Origin: a virus | IMG/VR virus record: IMGVR_UViG_3300033997_000205 | Location: 1 to 38,199 of that record | Reading direction: 5' to 3' (one strand) | DNA: 38,199 nucleotides | Shown here: piece after piece, positions 404 to 38,199 of the stretch | Numbering within the stretch: position 1 is the stretch's first letter | Layout of the letters: every line of letters starts with the position of its first letter | Position numbers and translations under genes: made by a program | Notes under the pieces: model-generated | Database searches by the model: none | What the model was told of the DNA's origin: nothing | What the model saw: the letters and a program-made list of their open reading frames with translations, nothing else

Positions 404-432
404 TTGCAATAAATGTGCATTTGTACTAATGT
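404..432 (+). promoter_or_regulatory. Likely parA promoter
   Basis: TTGCAA (404-409) and TAATGT (427-432) are separated by 17 bases, a reasonable sigma-70 arrangement about 40 bases upstream of parA. The spacer and the -10 box are covered by the ATGTGCATTTG repeats, which suggests autorepression by a DNA-binding partition protein. The regulation is inferred from this overlap. Confidence 0.5.
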
Positions 433-452
433 GCATTTGCACAATGCAAATT
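411..452. repeat. TGTGCATTTG repeat cluster A (parA upstream)
   Basis: Two direct copies of AATGTGCATTTG start at 412 and 428. The second runs into an inverted repeat, TTTGCA-CAA-TGCAAA. The same word family occurs upstream of terS, upstream of repA, and at two early-operon genes. It is a candidate operator/centromere for the RHH protein encoded at 1102-1365. Confidence 0.6.
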
Positions 453-470
453 AACTGAACGGAGGCGGAA

Positions 471-1109
471 ATGCCGATAGTCGTTGCGATATTAAATACA
501 AAAGGTGGCTCTGGTAAAACCACAGTTGCCACTCACCTTGCCAGCATGCTGCATCAATATGATGGCCCAGTGTTGCTTGTTGACCATGACCCGCAAGGGT
601 CGTCATCGGACTGGGGCGACAGGCGCGTTGGCGATGATTTGATGCCTGTTATCAGAATGGGTTTATCAATAGCTCGTGACCTGCCAAAAGTATCAAGAGA
701 TTACAAGTGGGTCATTATCGATGGAGCGCCAGTGGTAAACGAACTCAGCGCAGCAGCTGTCAGAGCCGCTGATGTTGTGCTGATAACCGTTATGCCTAGC
801 CCTTATGATGTATGGGCAACAGCTGGCGTCGTCGAGATGGTAAAAGTGCGTCAGCAAATTACTGACGGACAACCAAAAGCGGCATTTTTAATATCTAGGG
901 CAATAAAAAATACTAACTTGAGTAAAGATGTCAGGGATGCCCTGGCTGAGTATGAATTGCCTGTATTCAAGGCTAACACCTTTCAGTTCAAAGATTATCC
1001 GGAACTGGCCGCAGTAGGTAAGTCAGTTCTCGCACTGGGTGAAGATGAAAAGCCACGCTTTGATATAAAGAAAATCATGATGGAGTTGCAGGAGTTAGCC
1101 AATGAGTAA
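471..1109 (+). CDS. parA: ParA-family partition ATPase (ParF type)
   Basis: This 212-residue P-loop ATPase segregates low-copy plasmids by forming dynamic patterns on the nucleoid. It has a deviant Walker A, KGGSGKTT, near residues 11-18, the A' motif VDHDPQG near 38-44, and Walker B IIDGAP near 82-87. The short length and absence of an N-terminal DNA-binding domain place it with type Ib ParA proteins such as ParF of TP228, rather than the longer SopA of N15. GGAGG lies upstream of the ATG. It overlaps the next gene by 8 bases, as parFG-type operons do. It probably keeps the linear prophage plasmid stable. The family is certain; the ParF subtype is inferred from size. Confidence 0.92.
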   Translation: MPIVVAILNTKGGSGKTTVATHLASMLHQYDGPVLLVDHDPQGSSSDWGDRRVGDDLMPVIRMGLSIARDLPKVSRDYKWVIIDGAPVVNELSAAAVRAADVVLITVMPSPYDVWATAGVVEMVKVRQQITDGQPKAAFLISRAIKNTNLSKDVRDALAEYELPVFKANTFQFKDYPELAAVGKSVLALGEDEKPRFDIKKIMMELQELANE

Positions 1110-1365
1110 AACAAGTTTGTCTATCAAAAAACCGACTTTAACTGACAACGCTGACGGTAAAAAGGCACTGGAGGCGCTGGCGCGCGACGATTTAGACCAG
1201 GTATTAAAACGCCTGCCGCTGAATGTGCCGGAGGAGTACTACCGCCGTCTGCACATGATGAGAGCTGGCTCAGATAAGCCTGTAAAAGCTTTTGTCCTGG
1301 AAGCGTTGGAAGACCTGTTTAAGAAGTACGACAAGGGGGATGGTAAATACCATATACAAAACTAG
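1102..1365 (+). CDS. Partition ribbon-helix-helix DNA-binding protein (ParG-like)
   Basis: This 87-residue protein follows parA with an 8-base overlap. The flexible, charged N-terminal part (about 1-35) precedes a compact segment with the strand LPLNV and helices YYRRLHMMRAGS and PVKAFVLEALEDLFKKY (about 37-77), the pattern of an RHH fold. In type Ib systems, such a protein binds repeats upstream of parA, represses the operon, and uses its N-terminal tail to stimulate ParA polymerisation and ATPase. The likely targets here are the TGTGCATTTG repeats. It has no resemblance to SopB/ParB with HTH. The role follows from the fold and neighbour; no direct match is recalled. Confidence 0.75.
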   Translation: MSKTSLSIKKPTLTDNADGKKALEALARDDLDQVLKRLPLNVPEEYYRRLHMMRAGSDKPVKAFVLEALEDLFKKYDKGDGKYHIQN

Positions 1366-2737: not shown

Positions 2738-3216
2738 ATTCATTAGCTTTCGAGCGTTGGTTTTTGGAGCAATTTGGGAAGCGGCTGCGTGATTCAGCTC
2801 TAAGGACTGGGGAGGATGGTCAGTATAAAAATAAAGAAATTCAGGATTGCTGGCTGAGGTTTAAAGAAAGGAGGTCGAAGGAGGGTCCGTACTATTGCTT
2901 GTGCACAAACTGTTTGCTTATTACTGCATATTCACAGGACAAGCATAACGAAGTTGAATTTTGCTCTTGTGGCGGCCAGTTTTGCGGATGTCCGAGCTGC
3001 GATAGTTTTGCTGAAGCGCAAAGTGAGATTAACGAAAATCCAAGCTGGTACCTTTTCGCTAAAAATTATCCAGGCATTTTAAGAAAAGCTGCAGCAGCAG
3101 CTCCGATGAATATGAAGGCCGCAAGGGATGCTGCATCTTCAGCAGGCGCCGCTTTCCCGAGCAACCTTACCGACGATGAATTAACAAAAATAGTGCTGGC
3201 TGCACTGGGGGCTTAA
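2728..3216 (+). CDS. Cys-rich hypothetical protein
   Basis: This 162-residue protein starts at GTG, with GGGGG from the preceding coding end as the likely ribosome binding site. The middle holds cysteine clusters CLCTNC (about 57-62) and CSCGGQFCGCPSC (about 78-90), suggesting one or two zinc sites. The N-terminal region (FERWFLEQFGKRL) looks like short helical phage proteins. An Ala-rich linker leads to the DDELTKIVLAALG tail shared with the preceding gene. Its function is not recognised. It is bracketed by the 57-bp repeats and may be an exchangeable cassette. Confidence 0.6.
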   Translation: MEINSLAFERWFLEQFGKRLRDSALRTGEDGQYKNKEIQDCWLRFKERRSKEGPYYCLCTNCLLITAYSQDKHNEVEFCSCGGQFCGCPSCDSFAEAQSEINENPSWYLFAKNYPGILRKAAAAAPMNMKAARDAASSAGAAFPSNLTDDELTKIVLAALGA

Positions 3217-9361: not shown

Positions 9362-9558
9362 CACGCCCCCTGTTTAAGTCTCTGGATAGCTAACTCATAA
9401 CGCCGCAGCGCTTTGTCCGTTGACCAGGACAAAATTTCCTGTTCGCTGACGTTGTAAACAAGCGGGATTATGTCGGTGAGAGTGTCGACGTCTCGGCTGG
9501 AAAGTAATCCGCCGTTTCGTTCAAAAAACTGTTGATCCGCCCCTGCAGGTGATTCCAA
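9361..9558 (-). CDS. E': E' extension, reached by -1 frameshift from E
   Basis: This frame has no good start of its own and lies in the -1 frame of E. It is joined through the slippery heptamer T-TTT-TTG at 9522-9528 (on the - strand). After slippage, reading continues for about 53 codons to the TGA at 9361-9363, giving a fusion of about 233 residues. P2-like phages use the same slippery sequence for gpE+E', the tail assembly chaperone pair that wraps the tape measure protein. Only 9361-9522 is expected to be translated. Confidence 0.85.
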   Translation of the reverse strand: MESPAGADQQFFERNGGLLSSRDVDTLTDIIPLVYNVSEQEILSWSTDKALRRYELAIQRLKQGA

Positions 9559-12813: not shown

Positions 12814-13964
12814 TAGCTAATCCTCACATGGCAAGGCGCGCCCGTTGTTTTAATATCCTGACCATTTGCAGACACCACATTAGGCCAACCCGCATATGGC
12901 TTTCCGTTCCCTCGATACAGGTACTGTGTTTCACCAATCACATAATAGTTTTGACCTATTTTTTTTACGGAAACAACGCCTGACGGGGCGGCTGATATAG
13001 GGTCAACATCAATGCAGCGCCAATTTTTTAAATCTTCGGATTTATAAAATGTGCCGGTGACATATCCCAGCCAATAGCAGCCATCGGAGTAAGAAATCCG
13101 AGTCTTGTTATTGATTAATGCGTCATGCTTAACCAGCACCCAATTTTTGCCATCAACAGACGTCCGCAGCAAACCGGAGTATTGAGCGATAAATTTTTCG
13201 CCATCATGAATAAGCCCATAAATTCCGGCTGTTGTTGAGCCGTCTATCGTCATCAATGTAAATGTGGCTCCTCCATCGGTAGATACAGCCGAGTTATTTG
13301 TACCAGCTTCGCTGCCGACAACAATGATTCCATCACCGGATGCCGCAGACAGGAACAACTTTGTCGCGCCACTTAAAGCAACTGATTTGTTTGCCCAGTT
13401 GGTGCCATTCGCTGACGTTAGTATCACACTGGATTTACCAGCAGCAACGAGGAGTGCGCCTGTCCAATGTACGATGTAAAGGTCTGTGGCAACTCCTGAC
13501 CCCCTGGTTGTCCAATTTATTCCATCCGGTGATGTATAAATATTCCCGCCATCACCTACCGCAACGAACAATCCGAGCGGTTGAACCCAGATAACACAGC
13601 GGACTCGCAAGTTGTTTGTGGGAAAATTGTGAGGGCCTGTGAATGTCACCCCATTATCTATAGAGCGATAAAACTGGCCCGTGGTGGTTGTGGCTACTGG
13701 AGCAATAATGACCCCTGCGTTATTCCCAGCAATATCTTCAAACACAACCGTACCAGGTGATGTTATCGCTTCAAAATAAGTGCCGATGCTGCCTCGCCAA
13801 AATTCAGTGTCAAATTTTGACGGATCAGTCTCCATATAGCCGGTGCGTAACCAGCGTTCTCCACCTTGGGTAAAATCGTGTGGCAAATTATTGGGAAAGA
13901 ACCGCATTTCACCGATTAAAGCGCCACCTGCCGCTCCGGTTGCAGGTACGTCAGCTGTACTCAT
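12813..13964 (-). CDS. Tail fibre tip with six Asp-box repeats (beta-propeller)
   Basis: This 383-residue protein follows the P2 H-like fibre gene with a four-base overlap. Residues 1-45 include MRFFPNNLP, a common fibre joint motif. From about 100 to 315 there are six Asp-box-like motifs: SIDNGVTF (101), SPDGINW (145), SANGTNW (184), STDGGATF (228), SVDGKNW (269) and SEDLKNW (309). They are spaced 39-44 residues apart, as expected for blades of a sialidase/BNR-type propeller. No catalytic set is evident. It is probably the receptor-binding tip; the fold is inferred from the repeat spacing. Confidence 0.75.
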   Translation of the reverse strand: MSTADVPATGAAGGALIGEMRFFPNNLPHDFTQGGERWLRTGYMETDPSKFDTEFWRGSIGTYFEAITSPGTVVFEDIAGNNAGVIIAPVATTTTGQFYRSIDNGVTFTGPHNFPTNNLRVRCVIWVQPLGLFVAVGDGGNIYTSPDGINWTTRGSGVATDLYIVHWTGALLVAAGKSSVILTSANGTNWANKSVALSGATKLFLSAASGDGIIVVGSEAGTNNSAVSTDGGATFTLMTIDGSTTAGIYGLIHDGEKFIAQYSGLLRTSVDGKNWVLVKHDALINNKTRISYSDGCYWLGYVTGTFYKSEDLKNWRCIDVDPISAAPSGVVSVKKIGQNYYVIGETQYLYRGNGKPYAGWPNVVSANGQDIKTTGAPCHVRIS

Positions 13965-15363: not shown

Positions 15364-16352
15364 AGCGTCTCAATCTCTATGCTGATATTGAGGCAAAACG
15401 GGGCTTGATGCCTGGCACAAACCATCTCTGCAGCTGGACTGGTTAAGACCGCTTTTTTCGCTCCTGCACTAATCAGAAGGTGCTTGATATAGTCCAAGTC
15501 AACGACGCCACCTAGCCTGTGGCTTGATTCGGCATAAGAGGCCAATGCGGCCTCTGCTGAAGCCTTGGTAATGGAGGCGTCAGGCCCCTTGTTTATATAA
15601 GCCGTCCCAGTGATTTCATAGGTCTGAATTTCGGCCTTTTTAAAGGTGACTTCATCCGTTGCTACACCCACATCATCGCGTGAAAAGTGTTGCTCCACGG
15701 CCTCCATCAGCTCGTCTGACGGTATGCCTTGGCCCTCCCAGGATAAAATGTTTAACTGAATTTTCCCGGGGCCTATCCGGTCTGCAGCGGCGTCTTTTAC
15801 CTGACCGGCTAAAGTGCCTGCGCCCAGTTCATACGTCACAACAACTTTGCCTGGCGATGGAGATTCAATGCTGATCACCGGCCGCTCATCCAAGGCCATG
15901 GCCTGAAACTTGTAACCCAGCTTAGGCCCGGCAGAACTAAATCCGTAGGGAGCTAGGTAGTAGCGCAACTTTAAGTGTTCATCACTTTCTTTCACGGCTG
16001 GCACTGGAGGGTAAGCAGCAAGGTCTTCAGGCGATATGATTTGGCGCTTTAACCCAAGGTCGCTCACTTTCGCATCCAGATTGTTTCCTTCCGCCCAGTA
16101 AGCAAACATCTGCAAAGCCTGCTCGTTCTCGTTTCGCATAAAAGTCTGCAAAACCACGGTGCTGGCTTCGATTATCTTTGTTGACAACTCCGCCTCGTTC
16201 GCCAGTGTCTCTGCCACTTGTGCGGCCATCACCGGATCAGTTTTTGCGATATGAGCTATCACTGTGTCTTTGAATTTCTTCAGCTGCTGCTCAAATGGCG
16301 GCACAATCAATGCGTCTGGTTTAGCCAGTGTATTTTGTCCAGGTAAAAACAT
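15360..16352 (-). CDS. J: Baseplate wedge protein gpJ
   Basis: This 330-residue protein is the P2 gpJ type (related to T4 gp6) and forms the baseplate wedge. Recognisable parts are the AEGNNLDAKVSDLGLKRQII segment (about 88-108), HLKLRYYLAPYGFSSAGP (about 125-142), and PSPGKVVVTY in the central beta domain. The length is close to the P2 protein (302). It abuts gene W at 16352. Confidence 0.92.
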   Translation of the reverse strand: MFLPGQNTLAKPDALIVPPFEQQLKKFKDTVIAHIAKTDPVMAAQVAETLANEAELSTKIIEASTVVLQTFMRNENEQALQMFAYWAEGNNLDAKVSDLGLKRQIISPEDLAAYPPVPAVKESDEHLKLRYYLAPYGFSSAGPKLGYKFQAMALDERPVISIESPSPGKVVVTYELGAGTLAGQVKDAAADRIGPGKIQLNILSWEGQGIPSDELMEAVEQHFSRDDVGVATDEVTFKKAEIQTYEITGTAYINKGPDASITKASAEAALASYAESSHRLGGVVDLDYIKHLLISAGAKKAVLTSPAAEMVCARHQAPFCLNISIEIETL

Positions 16353-22917: not shown

Positions 22918-25037
22918 CTGCTATTCCTACCCCGAGCAACAAAGCCCTGGCGCGGCCGCCTCTTGGCAGCTGTTGACCGGCGCTTCACTGGGCGGGTTTT
23001 CTTTGGTTCATCGTCTGAATCGCTGGGCAGATCATGTTTTTCATCATCTGGCACAGGTTCGCTTTTGTCTGTGGGGGCTTTTTTACGGTCAATCCTGAGC
23101 ATTCGAGCGCACATATAATTCATGCCTTCGCAGTCTAGGTAGTCGTTACGCTTGGCGACCTTTACCCACTTGCCTGTGCTTTCGTCGTATTCTTCAGCAA
23201 CAATGTGCTGGCAATACTCTTCCGACACGTCTGCAGGTAAGCGCCAGTCACCATCCTGACCTTTTGGCCAGCGAACTCGGCTATGAACCCAGGCTTTTGC
23301 TAAACCAGCATCAAAGTCCCAGCGTTTATCGCCGTGCTTACGGGTTTTGCCTTTGGTGTCTACTTCGAGCCGTGCCATCCGAAACGCTTTTGACAGCCGT
23401 TCAAATCCCATCAGCGCCCTGGTGCGGCCCTTATGCTTTCTGACAAACATCAGCACTTCATCAGTGCGATAACCAGCATCTACCCCCATCAGGCTGAGCG
23501 TTCGGCCTTCCCACTCTTGTTCCAGTAGGTTGGCGACTTCGTCCCAGACTTCTGGCTTGTCGGTATCGCCCCAGATTTCACCCCATTCAACCAGACGGCT
23601 GGTCATGCCTGGACGCCATGCCCTGACCACGTAATAAACTCGGTCTTTTTGCACGTCCACCGTGCAGATCAACTGGTCAAATCCTTCTGGGACCTGACCA
23701 GCTGAATAGGTGTCGCGCAGTTCGTACACTTCTTCCCAGGCTGGAGCGTCACCAATGGCGCTATGCACTTCACCAAAACCGGTGTTATGTACAGCCATCA
23801 TCTTGCCAGGGTCGCCCGACTTGATGGCTTCCAGCAGCTTTTTAGCTAGGAAACCAAATGATTTTTTTGCGCTGAAGGAGCAAAGGCCGCTGACCCATAT
23901 GCTGAAACTGTCGTTACCATCATCCGTTTCAACGGCTGTCCAGTACGGCACTATATGCACCTGATCACCCTGGGTGATGGACACAAAACCTTCACTGTGA
24001 GACTTGGCTAGTTGCCCTGGAGCAACGGCCACCCCTCTGGCGTTCATGCGGCTTCGTTCAGAATCATCAATCTGAGCGCCGCAGTGCGGACAAATCAGCT
24101 TGGCATGGCGACTGGCATGGCTCGGGGTGCATTCCGCATCAGTACCCTTGCCTGGCCACCACAGTAGTTCACTGGATGGGCTGAAGTACTCGCCACAAGC
24201 AGGATCAAGGTGCGGCACCATCCATTCGTGCTTGGTGCCTGACTGCCATAGTCGCCATACAGGTGAAAATAGCTGTTTTGGATCTGTCACGGCCCAGTGT
24301 GTGTGACCGGTGACTGGGTGCGTGTAACGCTCGGCGCGCCCTTCTGTCGGGGTCGCGGTATAACCCGTTTTAGAGTCTGCGTAAGCATCGCCCCGGGCTT
24401 CGGCAATTTCTTCTAGTGAACCCTCGCCGCTGGCGTTGTCATCTGGTCTGTCGATTTCATCAACCAGTGTCAGCGCGGCCGAGTCAGACGCCAGCTCAGT
24501 GGCTGAACCTGCCCAGGCTAAACGCAAGTGAACACCGCCAACGTTTTTCCGGTGCTTTGAAGTTTCGCCTTTTTCCTTCTTCAGCTTGCGGTTCAGGCTG
24601 TCGCACTCCCTGAACATTTCAGCAATTTTCGGCTCGACCACCTTGTCAATGTTCGACTGCGTTGGGCCAACGTAGATCACCGGCGCTGGGTCATCATCCA
24701 GACGCCACCCAATCACGTTAAACATGGTCGCTGACTTACCCATCTGCGTTCCCATGACAAACGTAACCCGCTTGTATCTTGGGGAGGCAAAGGCGCGGCA
24801 CACAGGCACCATGTAAGGGGTTCGGGTATAACGGAAAGGACCTGGCTCCGGACTGCCAGGCGGCAATATGCGGTTAGCTTCTGCCCATTCGTCAGCTGCC
24901 CTCGGTGGTGGCGCTGTCACTATCTCCGCTGTCGTAGCCACGATATTCAGCAATAAACTTATAGATGCGGTCAGCGGTTTGAGCTCGAATTCGTCTTGAT
25001 TCTTCGAGCATCCTGGCTTTAATAATGGCTGGGTCAT
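22914..25037 (-). CDS. terL: Terminase large subunit (lambda gpA family)
   Basis: This enzyme packages DNA: the ATPase part translocates and the nuclease part cuts cos. MGTQMGKSA (about 95-103) is the P-loop, with LTLVDEIDRPD (about 183-193) as Walker B. Nuclease-domain acidic residues lie in CTVDVQKD (about 458-465) and MGVDAGYRTDE (about 517-527). The start is uncertain: the ATG at 25037 has no ribosome binding site and overlaps terS by 146 bases, so a GTG near 24941 or 24920 may be the true start. Full length would be 707. Confidence 0.93.
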   Translation of the reverse strand: MTQPLLKPGCSKNQDEFELKPLTASISLLLNIVATTAEIVTAPPPRAADEWAEANRILPPGSPEPGPFRYTRTPYMVPVCRAFASPRYKRVTFVMGTQMGKSATMFNVIGWRLDDDPAPVIYVGPTQSNIDKVVEPKIAEMFRECDSLNRKLKKEKGETSKHRKNVGGVHLRLAWAGSATELASDSAALTLVDEIDRPDDNASGEGSLEEIAEARGDAYADSKTGYTATPTEGRAERYTHPVTGHTHWAVTDPKQLFSPVWRLWQSGTKHEWMVPHLDPACGEYFSPSSELLWWPGKGTDAECTPSHASRHAKLICPHCGAQIDDSERSRMNARGVAVAPGQLAKSHSEGFVSITQGDQVHIVPYWTAVETDDGNDSFSIWVSGLCSFSAKKSFGFLAKKLLEAIKSGDPGKMMAVHNTGFGEVHSAIGDAPAWEEVYELRDTYSAGQVPEGFDQLICTVDVQKDRVYYVVRAWRPGMTSRLVEWGEIWGDTDKPEVWDEVANLLEQEWEGRTLSLMGVDAGYRTDEVLMFVRKHKGRTRALMGFERLSKAFRMARLEVDTKGKTRKHGDKRWDFDAGLAKAWVHSRVRWPKGQDGDWRLPADVSEEYCQHIVAEEYDESTGKWVKVAKRNDYLDCEGMNYMCARMLRIDRKKAPTDKSEPVPDDEKHDLPSDSDDEPKKTRPVKRRSTAAKRRPRQGFVARGRNSR

Positions 25038-25449
25038 TTATGCTGGCAAACTCCGAGGCAATACGCCCCCCAAGGGCATCAGATTGCTGGCCAAAAATGT
25101 TGGCGACTTCAAAAAGAACCGGCTTCAGCTCTTCTAAATCGATAGAAAGTCCCTGGGCTTTTTTGGCTTTTATTTCTTCTTGGATCCGCTTGGCTTTAAT
25201 GAGCAGTAATTCTTCTTCACTTTTTGAGCCTGATGCGGGTGCATCATCTCCGTCACGCATTCCCAGCTCTTTGGCCAGAGCTTCACGGATAAGCCAGGCG
25301 ATTGCTTCCTCAGAATCAATGACCAGCTCAACCCCTTTACCTCCACCCGATTCGACGGGCATCCCTTCTTCAGTTATCAACTTTGTAACCCAGCGAGGAG
25401 ACTTGCCAATGAGCTGGGCAAAGGTGGCTTTGTTAAATTTCAGACCCAT
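24892..25449 (-). CDS. terS: Terminase small subunit (Nu1-like)
   Basis: This 185-residue protein recognises the packaging site. MGLKFNKATFAQLIGKSPRWVTKLITEEGMP (key parts FAQLIGKS and WVTKLITEEGMP, about 9-30) is the winged HTH-like start of Nu1. A long coiled, charged middle part follows. The start at 25449 is chosen because AGGG precedes it and the domain begins there; the TTG-initiated frame from 25497 runs into repeat cluster B. It lies next to terL and after the presumed cos region, as in lambda. Confidence 0.9.
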   Translation of the reverse strand: MGLKFNKATFAQLIGKSPRWVTKLITEEGMPVESGGGKGVELVIDSEEAIAWLIREALAKELGMRDGDDAPASGSKSEEELLLIKAKRIQEEIKAKKAQGLSIDLEELKPVLFEVANIFGQQSDALGGRIASEFASINDPAIIKARMLEESRRIRAQTADRIYKFIAEYRGYDSGDSDSATTEGS

Positions 25450-25471
25450 AAACAACCCTGTAAGAAAGGAC

Positions 25472-25506
25472 AAAAGCGCAAAAGTGCAAATGTTCAAATG
25501 TTTCTT
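25472..25506. repeat. TGTGCATTTG-type repeat cluster B (terS upstream)
   Basis: GTGCAAATG (25484-25492) is followed by a second TTCAAATG unit and preceded by GCGCAAAAG. On the - strand this reads CATTTGAACATTTGCAC, sharing the word of clusters A, D and E. It lies 23 or more bases upstream of the terS start. Confidence 0.5.
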
Positions 25507-28084: not shown

Positions 28085-28381
28085 TCAACTGCCTGTTTTT
28101 TGTACGTCACGCAGCAGCCTAAATGGACTGCCATTGTCTAATGCGTCCAGGATAAATTGGCGCTGGTTAGGCGAGTGCTTTAAACACCTAACAGAGTAAG
28201 TCACTCTGTCCACATCGAAAGCCCCAAAGCAAAAGTCAGGCGCTTTTTCAAAAATCTCATTAGCAAAAAATTTGAGTAGCTTATCGTCAAACTGTCGCCA
28301 CATCGATAGGGGGCCGCTTGACATATCGTCCGTGATTTTCCCAAAAACATAGCGGTTGATGTGCATTTGCTGATTATTCAT
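28085..28381 (-). CDS. Hypothetical protein, end of early operon
   Basis: This 99-residue protein starts at 28381, where its ATG overlaps the TGA of the previous gene (TGATG). It begins MNNQQMHINRYVFGKI and is followed by mixed alpha/beta sequence with ALDNGSPFRLLRDVQK near the end. No family is recognised. It is the last gene before the tandem terminators and so is probably made early, before the late genes. Confidence 0.5.
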   Translation of the reverse strand: MNNQQMHINRYVFGKITDDMSSGPLSMWRQFDDKLLKFFANEIFEKAPDFCFGAFDVDRVTYSVRCLKHSPNQRQFILDALDNGSPFRLLRDVQKTGS

Positions 28382-28620
28382 CACGCTACCTGCAGTATCT
28401 TTTTTGCTGATAAAAGCTCGGCGTTTTGAGCGATACAGCAAAGGCCGAGTGATGTCCGGTTATCAATATGTCGGTGCATAAACTTGAGCGCCTGCTCAAA
28501 ATAGACAGCTGACGGGCTACGGCTGCAGGCCAGTGCGGTGGCGGTAATATAGACTAAGTTGTCGCGTTCCGGCACAGGCCATTTTACTTGTGCTTTTGTG
28601 CATTTGTGCTTTTGTGTCAT
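28381..28620 (-). CDS. Hypothetical protein, early operon
   Basis: This 79-residue protein is not recognised. Its ATG overlaps the stop of the PapB-like gene (TAATG) and its end overlaps the next start (TGATG), so it is coupled on both sides. The first dozen codons are made of the TTTGTGC-type repeats (cluster C), giving a Lys/Thr-rich start (MTQKHKCTKAQ). The rest has a helical CSRSPSAVYFEQALKFMHRH segment. Confidence 0.45.
   Translation of the reverse strand: MTQKHKCTKAQVKWPVPERDNLVYITATALACSRSPSAVYFEQALKFMHRHIDNRTSLGLCCIAQNAELLSAKKILQVA
28586..28620. repeat. TGTGCATTTG-type repeat cluster C
   Basis: Units TTGTGCTTTTGTGCATTTGT and TGCTTTTGTGTC follow each other with a period of about 11 bases. 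Unlike the other clusters, this one overlaps the 5' end of a coding region. The core GTGCATTTG is identical to that of clusters A and E. Confidence 0.6.
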
Positions 28621-28925
28621 TACTCATTTACGCCTGAGCTGTTTTCTTTATTATTTTTTATATCGGTTAACTGATATTGTTTTCGCCTTCTTTCGTCATG
28701 CTCTTTTATCTTTTCAACTATTTCGGCCTTTTCGTTCAGCGTAGCTAAGGCGCGGCTGACGTTCGGCTGCGGGACGTTGTTTAGCGCAGCTGAGGTCGTA
28801 ACACTCAGACCTCTTTCGAGGTGATCCACCAGAGCAGCAATAATATCCTCGCTGGTGATTTCTGTTAACTGAAGCAGCAGCAATATCCGCTCTTTTGATT
28901 CAATGCCTGGCGTTAAACTGTACAT
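28620..28925 (-). CDS. PapB/FaeA-family transcriptional regulator
   Basis: This 101-residue protein resembles PapB, a regulator of fimbrial operons. LTPGIESKERILLLLQLT (about 4-21) leads to TSEDIIAALVDHLERGLSVTTSAALNNVPQPNVSRALATLNEKAEIVEKI, of which the HTH core is TTSAALNNVPQPNVSRALATL (split at the turn; about 43-63). PapB-type proteins bind AT-rich DNA cooperatively. In a phage operon it likely regulates early or late genes. It overlaps the start of the next gene and is itself overlapped by the previous gene end. Confidence 0.75.
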   Translation of the reverse strand: MYSLTPGIESKERILLLLQLTEITSEDIIAALVDHLERGLSVTTSAALNNVPQPNVSRALATLNEKAEIVEKIKEHDERRRKQYQLTDIKNNKENSSGVNE

Positions 28926-29176
28926 AACAAAGCCTCCGGAGCTGGCAACATAGGAAGCACAATATTCAGTGCTGCCTGCTTGTCCATGATGTTGAAAATA
29001 TGGTTAATCCGTTCACGGCCAGCTGGGCCAGAGCCGCCAACGACTATTTTAATCGCCTGCCCACCTTTTGGCTTTGCCGTCAGTGTGATCTGCGATAAGT
29101 CTGCATCGCTAGTGTCATCCAGTACAACGAGGATCTGCGTTCTTGCGGTGTTAAACAGTTTTGCGAATTCTTCCAT
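28913..29176 (-). CDS. Hypothetical protein, early operon
   Basis: This 87-residue protein is read from the ATG at 29176, which has AGAAGGA upstream; the earlier ATG at 29203 lies in repeat cluster D. It begins MEEFAKLFNTARTQILVVLDD and contains GGQAIKIVVGGSGPAGRERI (about 38-57). The family is not recognised. It overlaps the PapB-like gene by 13 bases, so the two are probably coupled. Confidence 0.5.
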   Translation of the reverse strand: MEEFAKLFNTARTQILVVLDDTSDADLSQITLTAKPKGGQAIKIVVGGSGPAGRERINHIFNIMDKQAALNIVLPMLPAPEALLCTV

Positions 29177-29190
29177 TTCGTCGGTCCTTC

Positions 29191-29246
29191 TGTGAATGTG
29201 CAAATATGCTTTTGTGTAAATGTTCTTTTGTGTAAATGTTTATGCT
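29191..29246. repeat. TGTGCAAATG-type repeat cluster D
   Basis: AATGTGCAAATATG is followed by two copies of CTTTTGTGTAAATGTT. The two CTTTTGTGTAAATGTT units are exact direct repeats 17 bases apart. The cluster fills the gap between the Lar-like gene and the next early gene, so it overlaps the probable promoter of 28913-29176. Confidence 0.65.
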
Positions 29247-29632
29247 TGATTCTGAAGCTCCGCTGCTCTCATCTGCCACAGCTCCATGATGTGCATGTCG
29301 CCAGGCGTATTTGAGCGATGCCAGTCACAGAGCGCGCCCTGTGATGAGTGGCTTAGGTTGCCTTGCCAGTTACAACCGGTGCATTGATAAACCCACATCT
29401 GTCGAAGCTTGCTGTGCTTAATCGTTGGCTGGCTTCCGCAGCCTAAGCAGGCACGGTGTTCCTGGGCAAAGTTATTCCAGTAGCCAATGGCGGCCTCGTT
29501 GCTGGATGTCGCCTCTGTGTAAACTTTGCAGGCTATACACGCCACCATAAAGAATCCCGTCGCTGAGTCTGTTCTGAGCGACGGGATGTCTTTGCAGTGA
29601 GGGCATGGGTTTGGGCTATTCGGTTCTGTCAC
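29240..29632 (-). CDS. Lar-like restriction alleviation protein (double zinc ribbon)
   Basis: This 130-residue protein starts at the GTG at 29632, with GGAGG seven bases before it. CPHCKDIPSLRTDSATGFFMVACIACK (key parts CPHC and CIAC, about 10-35) followed by SSNEAAIGYWN is the Lar-family pattern, in which one zinc ribbon is followed by an EAIxxWN motif. A second zinc ribbon (CLGC, CTGC) extends the C-terminus to about twice the usual length. Lar in Rac prophage reduces type I restriction. The assignment rests on the first domain. Confidence 0.7.
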   Translation of the reverse strand: MTEPNSPNPCPHCKDIPSLRTDSATGFFMVACIACKVYTEATSSNEAAIGYWNNFAQEHRACLGCGSQPTIKHSKLRQMWVYQCTGCNWQGNLSHSSQGALCDWHRSNTPGDMHIMELWQMRAAELQNQA

Positions 29633-30254
29633 CGGCCACCTCCAAAATTGACGACAGGGCAGCATGATCGATGCTGGCCAGTTCGGTTCGCATTAGTCTC
29701 CAGCGCGGCAGCCAATCCCTGCGCCAGTTGCCCTCTGGTATTTCCACCAGCTGGCGAATGCGTTCAGGGGTATGTGCAGGCTTGCCTTGGGTACGGACAG
29801 ACTTATAGTTTTGGACGGCGAGATAAACCATACCCCTGACTTTCGCCAGGGTTTTTCCGCGCAGGCCTGTGAACTGGGGCGCAAGCTTTTCCCATAGGTC
29901 AAAAACAATACCTGACTCATCATCCCAGGTGTAATTGCCACTATAGGCGTAGCGAACCCACCGGCGCTCAGTGTCTGGCAAGCGGCCAACAGCGCGGACA
30001 ATCTTTGTGTCATCAAACGCCCATGGCGGCAACAGCACAGCGCTTTTGCCCTTGCGTACTTCACGGGCTTTCACTCGGCTCATATCGCCACTCATGTGTT
30101 CGTCTGTGTTTTTCTTGCGGGTGTGAGCGGCAGGGATCACATAAGCGGCAACGCCGTCGTCTCCCCTGGTCTTTATATGTACCGAGTGCGCCTGAAAAAT
30201 TCGAAGGCGCACCCAGTCCAGTTGTTGGCAGTACTCGCTCACAGGCATCTCCAT
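29616..30254 (-). CDS. Q-like late regulator (putative antiterminator)
   Basis: This 212-residue basic protein is the best candidate for late gene control. The C-terminal two thirds contain GRLPDTERRWVRYAYSGNY (about 90-108), LWEKLAPQFTGLRGKTLAKVRGMVYLAVQNYK (key parts LRGKTLAKV and VYLAVQNYK, about 120-152) and a Trp/Arg-rich stretch (NWRRDWLPRWRLMR). Similar proteins stand in the Q position of VP882/PhiHAP-1-type phages, to my recollection. It is in the early leftward operon, and tandem terminators follow before the late genes. An antitermination role is inferred from this context. Confidence 0.5.
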   Translation of the reverse strand: MEMPVSEYCQQLDWVRLRIFQAHSVHIKTRGDDGVAAYVIPAAHTRKKNTDEHMSGDMSRVKAREVRKGKSAVLLPPWAFDDTKIVRAVGRLPDTERRWVRYAYSGNYTWDDESGIVFDLWEKLAPQFTGLRGKTLAKVRGMVYLAVQNYKSVRTQGKPAHTPERIRQLVEIPEGNWRRDWLPRWRLMRTELASIDHAALSSILEVAGDRTE

Positions 30255-30454: not shown

Positions 30455-30511
30455 GGTTCAGTTTCCGGTCCGTATTGTAGGTAAGTTGATAATTTGCTTA
30501 TCTTTAATCAT

Positions 30512-30529
30512 CGTAAGTGATAATTTACG
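30512..30529. promoter_or_regulatory. Operator-like inverted repeat CGTAA-n8-TTACG
   Basis: CGTAA (30512-30516) and TTACG (30525-30529) form a symmetric site in the divergent space between the TraR-like gene and the repressor gene. A partly similar GTAAGTTGATAATTTGC stands at 30481, and TATTAG/CTAATA form a second symmetric pair (30532-30558). These are the likely repressor binding sites. Confidence 0.55.
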
Positions 30530-30625
30530 GTTATTAGTAATTACCTATTTTGCTAATAGTTAAATTTTATTTCAATGCTTTTTTAACTATATTCAAAAAA
30601 GAGTGGGGAAACTGAGGATCTATTC

Positions 30626-31513: not shown

Positions 31514-31572
31514 GCAAACAAATGTGTTTTTGTGCATTTGCTCATATGTGCAAATGTTCATTTGTGTATTTT
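31514..31572. repeat. TGTGCATTTG repeat cluster E (repA upstream)
   Basis: AAATGTGTTTTTGTGCATTTG is followed by ATATGTGCAAATGTTC and ATTTGTGTATTT. Copies of GTGCATTTG and its inverted form GTGCAAATG both occur. The cluster ends about 13 bases before the repA start, so it must overlap the leader or promoter. Confidence 0.65.
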
Positions 31573-31584
31573 TAAGGATGAACT

Positions 31585-34500
31585 GTGTCCCATAATAAAA
31601 GTTCTCTCATAGAGTTCTACCAAGCGCGCTTTAACTCTGATCCATATACGCTGCTCGACTTCTGCAGCTCGGATGTTGCAGCAACAGCTGCAGAGGTTCA
31701 GGTCGACTGGCACGCTATTTCATCCGATGTCCAGCTGAACGACCAAAAGCTGCGCGGCAAAATAAAGACCCTCAAAAAAGGCTATAACGGCAAGGTTGCT
31801 GTTTACGGCTCTATTAAGCGCACAGCTGGCGGCATCGAATACCCTCACATCAACTTCACAACGCAAAAAGACGGCGGCTACACCGCGACGTTTGACGGCT
31901 TTAAAGCGCTTCTGGAGATATATCAGCAGGAGGGCGGCCAAAGAATTGATTCAGCCAGGCAAAACGCCTGGGCAGAGCAGCAAGCAAAAAAACGCCGGGA
32001 CCGACAGGACCGGCTTGCTGCTTTGGAAGCCAAGGAAAAGAAAGCCAGGGAGCTGCGCTATAACGAGCATCTGGCGTACCAGGATGTTTTTATCCGGCAG
32101 GAAAACCGTCAGCTGCCCCGTAATGCAGTTCAGTACTTAGGTGCTGAAGACGGCACCGCCCCATATTTTCAGCTAAAGCAGATTGCTGACATTGTCGCCA
32201 CTGGTGCTATTGAATTGAAGCGCATGCGCGACTGGTCAGGGGATTTCACAGCCATCGCTCTGCATGACATTCACGGCGAGTACAAGGGCCTGCAGCGGCT
32301 ATACGAAAAATTTAAAAAATATACCGTGGCCGTCGATGACCATCAGTTCGATGGCGCGCACTGTATTATTGGCGACCTTGAGTCCAGTGATAAGGCGTAT
32401 GCCACCGAAGGTTTCGCCACCGGTGCTACTGTGTTTTTAGCCACCAGCATCCCTGTTATTGTCGCAATGAACGCCGACAACCTGAAGAAGGTTCTGCGCG
32501 ATTACAGTCGCTACAGACCGGAGTTGCAGATCACTAACGCGGCAGATAACGACGCATTTAAAATTAAGGTCGGCAACAAAGGTTTAATGACGGCCATCGA
32601 GCTGCATAAAGATTTTGGGATCCGTTCTGTTTATCCGTTGTTCGATGAGCTGGACATCAGCAAGAAGCCTACCGACTTCAACGACCTGCATTGCATCGCA
32701 GGTCTGGACGAAGTGAAGAAGCAAATTAAAGCCCGTAAAAATCGACTGGTGGCACATCCTCATTATTTTGAGTACTGCCTGCAGCGGCTTAGTTTTTCTG
32801 GTCATGACAATGCAAACGATGAGGCGCTGAAGGCCGTTGGCGCTGGCATGATGCTGTCGCCAATAAAGTACAGTACAGAGCAGGTTTATCGCTATGTGCA
32901 AAACAGTCTGCCAGCTGGCGTAAGCATCAGCGAATTTAAAGTCAGAGGCCGCATTAACTGGCTGGCCAAAGGTAAACTGCACCGCGCCAGGACATTACGC
33001 TCTTTTTCAGACCAGGCACTCAGTCAGCCGAATGTAAATTATATACGCCTGCAGGGCGAAGAAACGGAGCATGGTAACGTCAGGATCCCAAGCGCTGTTG
33101 TCGACCTGGTGGAAGGTCTGCAGGGCTGTATAATTATCCGCTCCCCGATGGGTTCAGGCAAAACTGACCTGTTGATCCAGCCCATCATGCACCGCGCACC
33201 AAAGGCCGCTTACATCGCCCACAGGGTCAGCCTGATCGGTGATGCGTCAAACCGCCTGAACATTAGCAATTACCAGGACACCATGGCTTCGGAAATGCCG
33301 TTTGTTTCGCACCTGGCATGCTGTGTAAATTCCATCATTAACCCTAAATTTTCCAACGCTGACGGCCTGAACTGGTTTCAGACGGTTGATACATTGTGTA
33401 TTGATGAGGCCAGCCAGGTAATGCGACATACAACCAATGGTCCTGTCGATAATCCTGTCCTAGTGATGGACGGTTTAGTGCAAGCCATGCGCGCCTCCAG
33501 GCGTGTTCTGTTGTGCGATGCTGATGCCAATGACGGCCTGATTGACCTGTGTGAGATGGCGCGCCCTGGTGAACCTATTCACATTATCGAAGTGACCGGC
33601 ACATGCAAACACATCAGCGTCCTGCACACCGACATCAATAGCGCTTTTGCTGAAGTTATCTCGCTGGCCAAGGCTGATAAGACCGTACTGGTGGCCAACG
33701 ACTCAGCCAAAGACGGCAAAAAAATGGTTGAAGTGCTGAAGCAACAAAAGCCCGATATTCGTGTAATGCACGTTCACAAGGACAGCAAAGCGGATGCAAA
33801 CGTGGAAGCGTTTTTGAACGATCCAAACGGCGAATGCACTAAATACGATGTCATTATTTATTCACCGGCTATCAGCTCCGGGGTATCAATTACCGTTCCG
33901 CACTTTAGCAACCATGTGTCTATTTTTCATGGGGTGGTACCGCCGACAGACGCTGTACAAATGATGAGACGCGACAGAACGGCGCGCCAGTACGTCATGG
34001 GAATAGGCATAAACAACACGCAGCGGGATATTGACCGCGAGGCTATTTATCGCGGCCTGGTGGCAGCTGATGAGCTAACTGTCGATTTTGAAGAGACAAG
34101 CACAGAAATTATTCTGCGTCGGAAAAAAACCATCTATGACGAAGTTCGCCTGGCATCGATAGCGGAAGAAAACCGAAGCCGCAACGACTTCGCCAACAAC
34201 CTGCTGCTGATCCTCATAGCTGACCGCTATGTTGTCGACGCGCTTTGTGCTGATGACGATGCCATAGCTGCAGCGAAGCAAATGAAGAAGTGGGGCAAGG
34301 GGATTATCGAGATGAAACGCATCGAGATGATCATGAGCCAGCCAACACCAGACGACGACGTCTATAACCGGTTGAGCCGCTCAGAACTAAGGTCAGAGGC
34401 CGAGGCAGCACAGATTGACCGGTACCACATGGAAACGCAGTTATGCGTGGCAGAAATTACTCCGGAAGTAATAGCGTTTTATGATGACCGGGGCATCAAG

Positions 34501-35307
34501 AAAGTGGCGGCCATGGAGCTGCTGCAGTCCAGTGATGCAGAGGCCGTTGCCTACGATATGGCGCAAATAAAAAACAAGGTGGTTTTGACCAGGCATAACT
34601 ACAAACGCGCCACCAGGAATCTTTATGTGAAGCTGTTCCAACAGCTCGGCATAAACCCGATGACCGGTGAAGGTAAATTTACGCATAAAGCGGCTCGGGT
34701 GGCCATGTCGGACATACTCAAAGACAGGGCCTCTATAGAGCTGTATAACGCGCTTAAAATCGGGGCCTATGTAAACCCTAGCGCAATGCCTAAAGACCCG
34801 ACAACGTTCATTAAAAACATTCTGGAGCGTTTTGGTCTTGTGATCCACAAGTGGAAGTCAAGCGGCCACAACATGCTAATGATTGAACCCGGCTCCTGGG
34901 CCCACATGATGCGTTATGTTCAGCTCAGAAAATCGAACGGCATCAGCAGCCTTCAGTTCCACGATAAGGACGCACCTGCAGCCCTACGCAGAGAGACAGG
35001 CCTGGACGCGCAGCCAATACCTCCAGAAGCCTTTGAGGCCGAGCTCTGTGGCGATGGGGACACTTTCCAAATTAGTCATATATGTACAGATGAGAAGTAT
35101 CCCTATGTTCGAGATCGAGTGATAAGGATCGTGCATGAGTTTATATCCGGCACAGAGATCCCTCCGGAATTTGCCCAAGCCCAGTTGTCAGTACAGGACA
35201 TTTTGGATATTGACCGGCAGCTGATAGGCAAAGCGGAGCTGGTACAGCTTCTGAGGTCGCGGTATCGCGAAAGGCAGCTACGATTGAAGGTTAACCAGAA
35301 GTTATAG
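31585..35307 (+). CDS. repA: Replication protein RepA (primase-helicase)
   Basis: This 1240-residue protein is the replication initiator of the N15/VP882/PhiHAP-1 kind. A Toprim-type primase part has YATEGFATGATVFLA (about 271-285) and the later acidic AADND (about 318). The helicase part has Walker A SPMGSGKTD (about 519-527), DEAS box CIDEAS (about 605-610) and the arginine-rich QMMRRDRTAR (about 791-800). Together they resemble herpes-type origin-binding helicases. The start is GTG with AAGGA before it. In N15 the origin lies within repA, so the same may hold here. Confidence 0.92.
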   Translation: MSHNKSSLIEFYQARFNSDPYTLLDFCSSDVAATAAEVQVDWHAISSDVQLNDQKLRGKIKTLKKGYNGKVAVYGSIKRTAGGIEYPHINFTTQKDGGYTATFDGFKALLEIYQQEGGQRIDSARQNAWAEQQAKKRRDRQDRLAALEAKEKKARELRYNEHLAYQDVFIRQENRQLPRNAVQYLGAEDGTAPYFQLKQIADIVATGAIELKRMRDWSGDFTAIALHDIHGEYKGLQRLYEKFKKYTVAVDDHQFDGAHCIIGDLESSDKAYATEGFATGATVFLATSIPVIVAMNADNLKKVLRDYSRYRPELQITNAADNDAFKIKVGNKGLMTAIELHKDFGIRSVYPLFDELDISKKPTDFNDLHCIAGLDEVKKQIKARKNRLVAHPHYFEYCLQRLSFSGHDNANDEALKAVGAGMMLSPIKYSTEQVYRYVQNSLPAGVSISEFKVRGRINWLAKGKLHRARTLRSFSDQALSQPNVNYIRLQGEETEHGNVRIPSAVVDLVEGLQGCIIIRSPMGSGKTDLLIQPIMHRAPKAAYIAHRVSLIGDASNRLNISNYQDTMASEMPFVSHLACCVNSIINPKFSNADGLNWFQTVDTLCIDEASQVMRHTTNGPVDNPVLVMDGLVQAMRASRRVLLCDADANDGLIDLCEMARPGEPIHIIEVTGTCKHISVLHTDINSAFAEVISLAKADKTVLVANDSAKDGKKMVEVLKQQKPDIRVMHVHKDSKADANVEAFLNDPNGECTKYDVIIYSPAISSGVSITVPHFSNHVSIFHGVVPPTDAVQMMRRDRTARQYVMGIGINNTQRDIDREAIYRGLVAADELTVDFEETSTEIILRRKKTIYDEVRLASIAEENRSRNDFANNLLLILIADRYVVDALCADDDAIAAAKQMKKWGKGIIEMKRIEMIMSQPTPDDDVYNRLSRSELRSEAEAAQIDRYHMETQLCVAEITPEVIAFYDDRGIKKVAAMELLQSSDAEAVAYDMAQIKNKVVLTRHNYKRATRNLYVKLFQQLGINPMTGEGKFTHKAARVAMSDILKDRASIELYNALKIGAYVNPSAMPKDPTTFIKNILERFGLVIHKWKSSGHNMLMIEPGSWAHMMRYVQLRKSNGISSLQFHDKDAPAALRRETGLDAQPIPPEAFEAELCGDGDTFQISHICTDEKYPYVRDRVIRIVHEFISGTEIPPEFAQAQLSVQDILDIDRQLIGKAELVQLLRSRYRERQLRLKVNQKL

Positions 35308-38159: not shown

Positions 38160-38199
38160 CATTACACCCCATACTATACGTATAGTATGGGGTGTAATG
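38160..38199. repeat. Right hairpin telomere palindrome (telR)
   Basis: The last 40 bases are a perfect palindrome with its axis between 38179 and 38180. The central 28 bases equal those of the left telomere and the flanks differ, so the left and right half-sites can be joined into a hybrid telRL in the circular phage form. It reads as a sequenced-through hairpin. Confidence 0.95.

What the first reader, a model, noticed from the sequence alone, without database searches (positions are those of the whole stretch)
411..452. TGTGCATTTG repeats dispersed over five loci: a split centromere or master operator
Clusters of GTGCATTTG / GTGCAAATG words occur upstream of parA (411-452), upstream of terS (25472-25506), at 28586-28620, at 29191-29246 and upstream of repA (31514-31572). 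Each lies at the 5' end of a gene. N15 is known for centromere sites scattered through the genome and bound by SopB. Here the partner would be an unrelated ParG-like RHH protein, so the dispersed design may have arisen twice.
Basis: partly seen in the sequence, partly recalled or inferred. Interest (0 to 1): 0.75.

Follow-up and report, generated by a model that had tools for sequence, protein, structure and literature searches.

The report
Dispersed partition-protein sites in telomere phages
A virus that lives inside bacteria as a linear plasmid carries the same short repeated DNA address at five gene starts, and the pattern, conserved in its relatives, suggests that one small DNA-segregation protein reads all of them, linking inheritance of the virus DNA to control of its replication and packaging genes.

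Summary
Four exceed every shuffle; the terS array is weaker alone but conserved in relatives. The window is a complete 38.2-kb linear prophage of the VP882/phiHAP-1 telomere-phage kind. About 17 complete or near-complete relatives carry such arrays, recurrently at parA, repA and terS and usually after lar. Eight telomere phages without the small RHH gene have none. Of 28 window genes tested, only parA and the RHH gene track the arrays perfectly. The consensus shifts between lineages at all sites of one genome together (TGTRC to TRCGY, for example; 0/10,000 permutations), pointing to one trans-acting reader, most likely the RHH ParB. The parA array spans a -35/-10 pair in all nine lineages inspected. 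Best reading: a ParF/ParG-like partition system whose binding sites are dispersed operators, as for pSM19035 omega, here extended to packaging and early/lytic genes; the parA array is the probable main centromere. Binding, and centromere activity of the remote arrays, are untested. I found no description in the open papers searched. New variant of a known kind; interest 0.6.

The parts
414..445 (+). Array 1, upstream of parA: TGTGCATT TGTACTAA TGTGCATT TGCACAAT (8-bp register)
   Evidence: same place in the relatives
404..432 (+). Probable parA promoter overlapping array 1: TTGCAA (404-409), 17 bp, TAATGT (427-432)
   Evidence: a comparable -35/-10 pair overlaps the array in all 9 lineages inspected. 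Consensus match only
471..1109 (+). parA, ParF-like Walker-type partition ATPase
   Evidence: NF041546 ParA_partition 212 bits, cut-off 180; ParF 4dzz E 2.8e-35
1102..1365 (+). Small ribbon-helix-helix protein (87 aa), proposed centromere-binding protein and regulator
   Evidence: phrog_15913 E 3e-21; Antitox_RHH E 1.9e-5, just below cut-off; in all array-bearing genomes and no control
25465..25506 (-). Array 2, 16 bp upstream of the likely terS ATG (25449): TGAACATT TGCACTTT TGCGCTTT TGTCCTTT
   Evidence: terS start from alignment with VP882
24892..25449 (-). terS, small terminase subunit
   Evidence: 45% identical to VP882 terS
28589..28628 (+). Array 3, over the first codons of ORF 28381-28620(-): TGTGCTTT TGTGCATT TGTGCTTT TGTGTCAT TACTCATT
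29197..29244 (+). Array 4, between lar and the next gene (likely ATG near 29176): TGTGCAAA TATGCTTT TGTGTAAA TGTTCTTT TGTGTAAA TGTTTATG
   Evidence: an array after lar also in VP882, phiHAP-1, G007 and others
29240..29665 (-). lar-like restriction-alleviation gene
   Evidence: phrog_6795 E 2e-26
31523..31570 (+). Array 5, upstream of repA: TGTGTTTT TGTGCATT TGCTCATA TGTGCAAA TGTTCATT TGTGTATT
   Evidence: highest score in the window, 54.0 against a shuffle maximum of 17.0
31585..35307 (+). repA, plasmid/phage replication protein
   Evidence: phrog_4913 1180 bits
36381..38033 (-). Protelomerase; with the palindromes at 1-38 and 38161-38199 it marks the window as a linear telomere prophage
   Evidence: ResT-TelK_cat E 4.2e-27; palindromes

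Best explanation
The five arrays are binding sites of the RHH protein at 1102-1365, the centromere-binding partner of the ParF-like ParA. Dimers would load side by side on the 8-bp units. At parA this covers the promoter, so the par operon represses itself, and this array is probably the main centromere. At repA, terS and the genes after lar the same protein acts as an operator-binding repressor that ties replication, packaging and early/lytic gene expression to the dose of partition protein, and so to the number of genome copies. Each array of at least four contiguous units could also engage ParA and act as an accessory centromere. Shown: arrays, positions, conservation, co-occurrence with ParA+RHH, concerted change of consensus. 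Inferred: binding by the RHH, repression, and the centromere role.
For: (1) Phased arrays far above shuffles in the window and in VP882, phiHAP-1, MAR, VHML and VP58.5, including sites not used for training. (2) Same places in G001-G010 and pPHPALO418: parA, repA, terS, and usually near lar. (3) Consensus-free search: 3-8 further dispersed places in each of 11 RHH-bearing genomes; 0-1 in each of 8 telomere phages without it; 0-2 in shuffles. (4) Of 28 window genes only ParA and RHH match this pattern; RepA, Tel, Lar and Q homologues occur without arrays, CI occurs once without arrays (ST2-1pr), and MAR/VP58.5 keep arrays although RepA and Tel are only remotely similar and TerS and Q are not detected. 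(5) Consensus differs between lineages but agrees within a genome (diagonal excess 8.8 bits, 0/10,000 permutations; still 0/10,000 without G007); G007 has TRCGYWWW at parA, repA, terS and after lar. (6) Array difference correlates with RHH strand/helix-1 difference (Mantel r 0.43, 102/5,000). (7) The array overlaps a parA -35/-10 pair in 9 lineages. (8) Precedents: ParG binds parH (short boxes with AT-rich spacers) and the parFG operator (PMC7308502); omega repeats overlap copS/delta/omega promoters and four contiguous repeats are needed for full ParA activation (PMC9499535).
Against: No binding or expression data. The RHH assignment rests on weak profile hits: window protein below the Pfam cut-off, RHH_3 in 2 of 14 and Antitox_RHH in 4 of 14 relatives. 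A ParG hit at E 0.31 did not recur with the larger profile. The predicted monomer is low confidence (pLDDT 60) and found no PDB match. The terS array is degenerate in the window and weak in VP882. Co-occurrence and the Mantel result are partly confounded by shared ancestry.
Confidence: 0.75

Rival explanations
1. Operators only: the RHH protein represses genes at all five arrays, but only the parA-proximal array is the functional centromere.
For: All arrays lie at gene starts, the parA array covers a promoter-like pair, and the terS array is more degenerate, as expected of a tuned operator. ParG uses one centromere plus an operator (PMC7308502).
Against: In pSM19035 the operator arrays are themselves parS sites (PMC9499535), and the repA, lar and 28589 arrays have at least four contiguous units.
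Confidence: 0.4
2. The arrays are sites of another phage regulator (CI, a CII-like protein, Q, or RepA as iterons), not of the RHH protein.
For: CI is present in all 11 array-bearing genomes tested and in only one of the eight controls. Iterons near repA are common in plasmids in general (own knowledge).
Against: ST2-1pr has a CI homologue but no arrays; RepA homologues occur in controls without arrays, and MAR keeps arrays with a very different RepA. No array lies in the cI-dksA intergenic region, where CI operators are expected.
Confidence: 0.1
3. A split centromere in the N15 sense: the dispersed arrays exist mainly for segregation, and their position at gene starts is incidental.
For: Arrays lie on both arms of the linear prophage; N15 has the separate sites IR1-4 (PMC7205306).
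Against: Arrays are strongly concentrated at gene starts, and specific genes (parA, repA, terS) keep them across divergent lineages.
Confidence: 0.1
4. Chance AT-rich low-complexity words common upstream of genes.
For: The single 9-mer with one mismatch is not enriched.
Against: Phased arrays exceed shuffles in every RHH-bearing genome, while eight controls of the same phage type have none.
Confidence: 0.01

Closest known systems
pSM19035 delta-omega partition system (Firmicutes; PMC9499535)
   Same: RHH ParB-like protein, small ParA, several dispersed arrays of short contiguous repeats that overlap promoters of the par genes and of a copy-number gene; arrays of four or more units are functional.
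   Different: 7-bp WATCACW repeats against 8-bp TGTRCWWW here; unrelated host and replicon; no phage packaging or lytic genes among the targets.
TP228 ParFGH (PMC7308502)
   Same: ParF-like ATPase (4dzz, E 2.8e-35), downstream small protein of RHH type, array of short boxes with AT-rich spacers, operator upstream of the par operon.
   Different: Centromere and operator at one locus; box sequence differs; RHH homology to ParG not established by sequence (E 0.31).
N15 SopABC with dispersed IR1-4 (PMC7205306)
   Same: Linear telomere prophage with several partition sites spread over the genome.
   Different: SopA is the larger type-Ia ATPase and SopB an unrelated ParB; sites are single inverted repeats (GTGCGACC..GGTCGCAC type); N15 has no 8-bp arrays.
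VP882, phiHAP-1 and VHML telomere phages
   Same: Same phage group; they carry the same par pair and the same arrays.
   Different: Arrays mostly TGTACWWW against TGTGCWWW in the window. Papers on VP882-like phages that I could read do not mention partition sites.

Membership tests
Type Ib ParA (ParF-like) partition ATPase | Small ParA without N-terminal HTH, Walker motifs, match to curated family | tested here: met
   212 aa, NF041546 above cut-off; ParF/pNOB8 ParA best PDB hits
RHH centromere-binding protein | RHH fold, gene directly downstream of parA | tested here: inconclusive
   Gene overlaps the parA stop; Pfam RHH hits below or near cut-off; model shows extended stretch plus two helices but pLDDT 60
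RHH centromere-binding protein | Binds the array DNA and stimulates ParA | not testable with these tools
   Needs binding and ATPase assays
pSM19035-like dispersed parS/operator system | Several arrays of contiguous short repeats at the starts of par and replication genes | tested here: met
pSM19035-like dispersed parS/operator system | Heptad WATCACW repeat | tested here: not met
   8-bp TGTGCWWW units; so it works like omega-parS, but is not claimed as a member
N15 dispersed centromere | SopB-type ParB and inverted-repeat sites | tested here: not met
   The gene after parA is the 87-aa RHH protein, not a SopB-type ParB; N15 lacks the arrays
Hapunavirus-type telomere phage | Protelomerase, terminal palindromes, VP882-like gene set | tested here: met

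The most novel reading that the evidence does not exclude
The partition protein of these phage-plasmids is an extra layer of lysogeny control: bound at repA, terS and the early/lysis region it senses copy number and holds replication, packaging and lytic genes down while the genome is segregated as a plasmid, and its titration by rising copy number helps release the lytic programme.
Probability: 0.4. Interest if true: 0.8.

Novelty: new variant of a known kind. Interest (0 to 1): 0.6.

Why it matters
Phage-plasmids must switch between being a stable plasmid and a lytic virus. A partition protein with conserved sites at parA, repA, terS and early genes would link segregation, copy number and the lytic switch directly. 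VP882 is a genetically tractable model in which this can be tested. It would also be a further case of dispersed centromere/operator design, beside pSM19035 and N15, in an unrelated replicon.

Tried and rejected
Single-word scan with one mismatch: not informative. ParA as viral-contig query found only two loci; the RHH alignment found 28. The genome-contig scan gave five loci, one (L068, Nitrospira) without a visible array. The first concert test (repeated) used a wrong repA region for G006; corrected, where the MAR 'lar' region was replaced by its array at 34225-34288 because Vhmlvirus has none after lar. PDB profile hits other than ParG and a CopG-type regulator look spurious. Chance, RepA iterons and CI operators were considered and rejected as described under rivals.

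Full report
WHAT THE WINDOW IS. The 38,199-bp window begins and ends with palindromes (1-38 and 38161-38199) and encodes a protelomerase. Protein similarity places it with Vibrio phage VP882 and Halomonas phage phiHAP-1: RepA 66%, protelomerase about 69%, ParA 61% and the RHH protein 55% identical to VP882. It is a complete linear phage-plasmid, a virus of bacteria, held as a virus record in IMG/VR.

THE OBSERVATION. The five clusters exist where stated. They are arrays of 8-bp units in fixed register, consensus TGTGC[A/T]TT from 23 units. As a single word with one mismatch the motif is not enriched; exact copies are (6 against 0.8). As phased arrays four clusters exceed all shuffles. With a matrix trained on the parA and repA arrays of four genomes the window scores are 54.0, 42.0, 39.2, 37.9 and 26.3, against a shuffle maximum of 17.0; the parA and repA values are training data, the other three are independent. 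All five lie within 40 bp of a start codon against 16% of random positions.

RELATIVES. The same matrix finds 6-10 arrays above 20 bits each in VP882, phiHAP-1, MAR, VHML and VP58.5 (some in Vhmlvirus are telomere-linked words), and 4-6 in G001-G006 from IMG/VR. For lineages with a changed consensus I trained on the parA array only: G007 then shows arrays upstream of parA (3135-3182), upstream of repA (9375-9414), upstream of terS (16007-16078), after lar (13326-13365) and at 13621-13660, all TRCGYWWW-like, against a shuffle maximum of 18.7. G008-G010 and the P. aeruginosa plasmid pPHPALO418 show the same places. The parA, repA and terS sites recur in nearly all genomes; the terS array is weak in VP882 and the site after lar is missing in Vhmlvirus.

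CONTROLS. Eight protelomerase phages without this RHH gene (K242, HY01, N15, ST2-1pr, PY54, Valp1, ARM81ld, PhAER-1) give no dispersed arrays in a consensus-free search: 0 or 1 further place, against 3-8 in eleven RHH-bearing genomes and 0-2 in shuffles. Of 28 window genes, only ParA and RHH follow the arrays (ParA has only weak 33-37-bit ATPase matches in some controls). CI comes next but occurs in ST2-1pr without arrays. MAR and VP58.5 keep arrays although their RepA and protelomerase are only remotely similar and TerS and Q are not detected.

ONE READER. If one protein reads all arrays, their consensus should change together. Matrices from each genome's parA array were scored on the repA, terS and lar regions of all genomes. 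Own-genome scores exceed expectation by 8.8 bits (0 of 10,000 permutations), by 5.3 bits without G007 (0 of 10,000), and by 3.6 bits without G007, G008 and pPHPALO418 (9 of 10,000). Array difference correlates with difference in the RHH strand/helix-1 segment (Mantel r 0.43, 102 of 5,000); shared ancestry is not removed from that number.

MECHANISM. ParA is a ParF-type ATPase. The downstream 87-aa protein is most likely RHH, although structure prediction was inconclusive. In nine lineages a -35/-10 pair (TTGTAC, TTGCAC, TTGCAA and similar, 16-17 bp, TAATGT and similar) overlaps the parA array, which fits autorepression. ParG represses parFG while also binding parH (PMC7308502). In pSM19035 the omega repeats overlap the promoters of copS, delta and omega, are the parS sites, and need four contiguous units for full ParA activation (PMC9499535). 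The window arrays have about four to six units. I therefore think that the RHH protein binds the arrays (about 0.85), represses at several (about 0.75), and that the remote arrays also serve as accessory centromeres (about 0.45). Binding itself is inferred throughout.

NOVELTY. The type of system is known, and the dispersed design has precedents in pSM19035 and N15. New here are the conserved places in telomere phage-plasmids, the reach to terS and early/lytic genes, and the lineage-specific change of the repeat code. Full-text searches did not show a description, and three VP882 papers searched for it do not mention partition sites. The original genome papers of VP882, phiHAP-1, VHML and VP58.5 did not turn up in the library, so prior mention cannot be excluded.

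Noticed in passing
window 25464 (+) and 25621 (+); VP882 69/124/194 and 25837/25901/25930; G006 11961/12005; G008 25901/25945: A second short word, GAAAGGAC, occurs as an inverted pair around the terS array in several relatives and repeatedly upstream of the parA array; possibly a packaging or other regulatory site.
   Followed up: partly
L009 26153-26339 (MAR), L010 46-101 and 43136-43175 (VHML): TGTACAGT/TGTACACT words recur next to the telomere site in Vhmlvirus; they score as weak arrays but look like a different, telomere-linked repeat.
   Followed up: no
window 30490-30565: TGATAATTT-type repeats between dksA and cI look like CI operators and are unlike the 8-bp arrays.
   Followed up: no
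window 28620-28925: PapB-like HTH regulator gene in the early operon between two arrays, without a detected homologue in the genomes tested.
   Followed up: no
L071 (pPHPALO418), L064 (Spirulina contig), L065 (Halomonas sp. KAO): A P. aeruginosa 'plasmid' is a telomere phage of this group; a contig filed under Spirulina carries a Halomonas-like one, probably a contaminant.
   Followed up: partly
L008 32952-32983 (phiHAP-1): The repA array lies inside the annotated repA start, so the annotated start may be too early.
   Followed up: no
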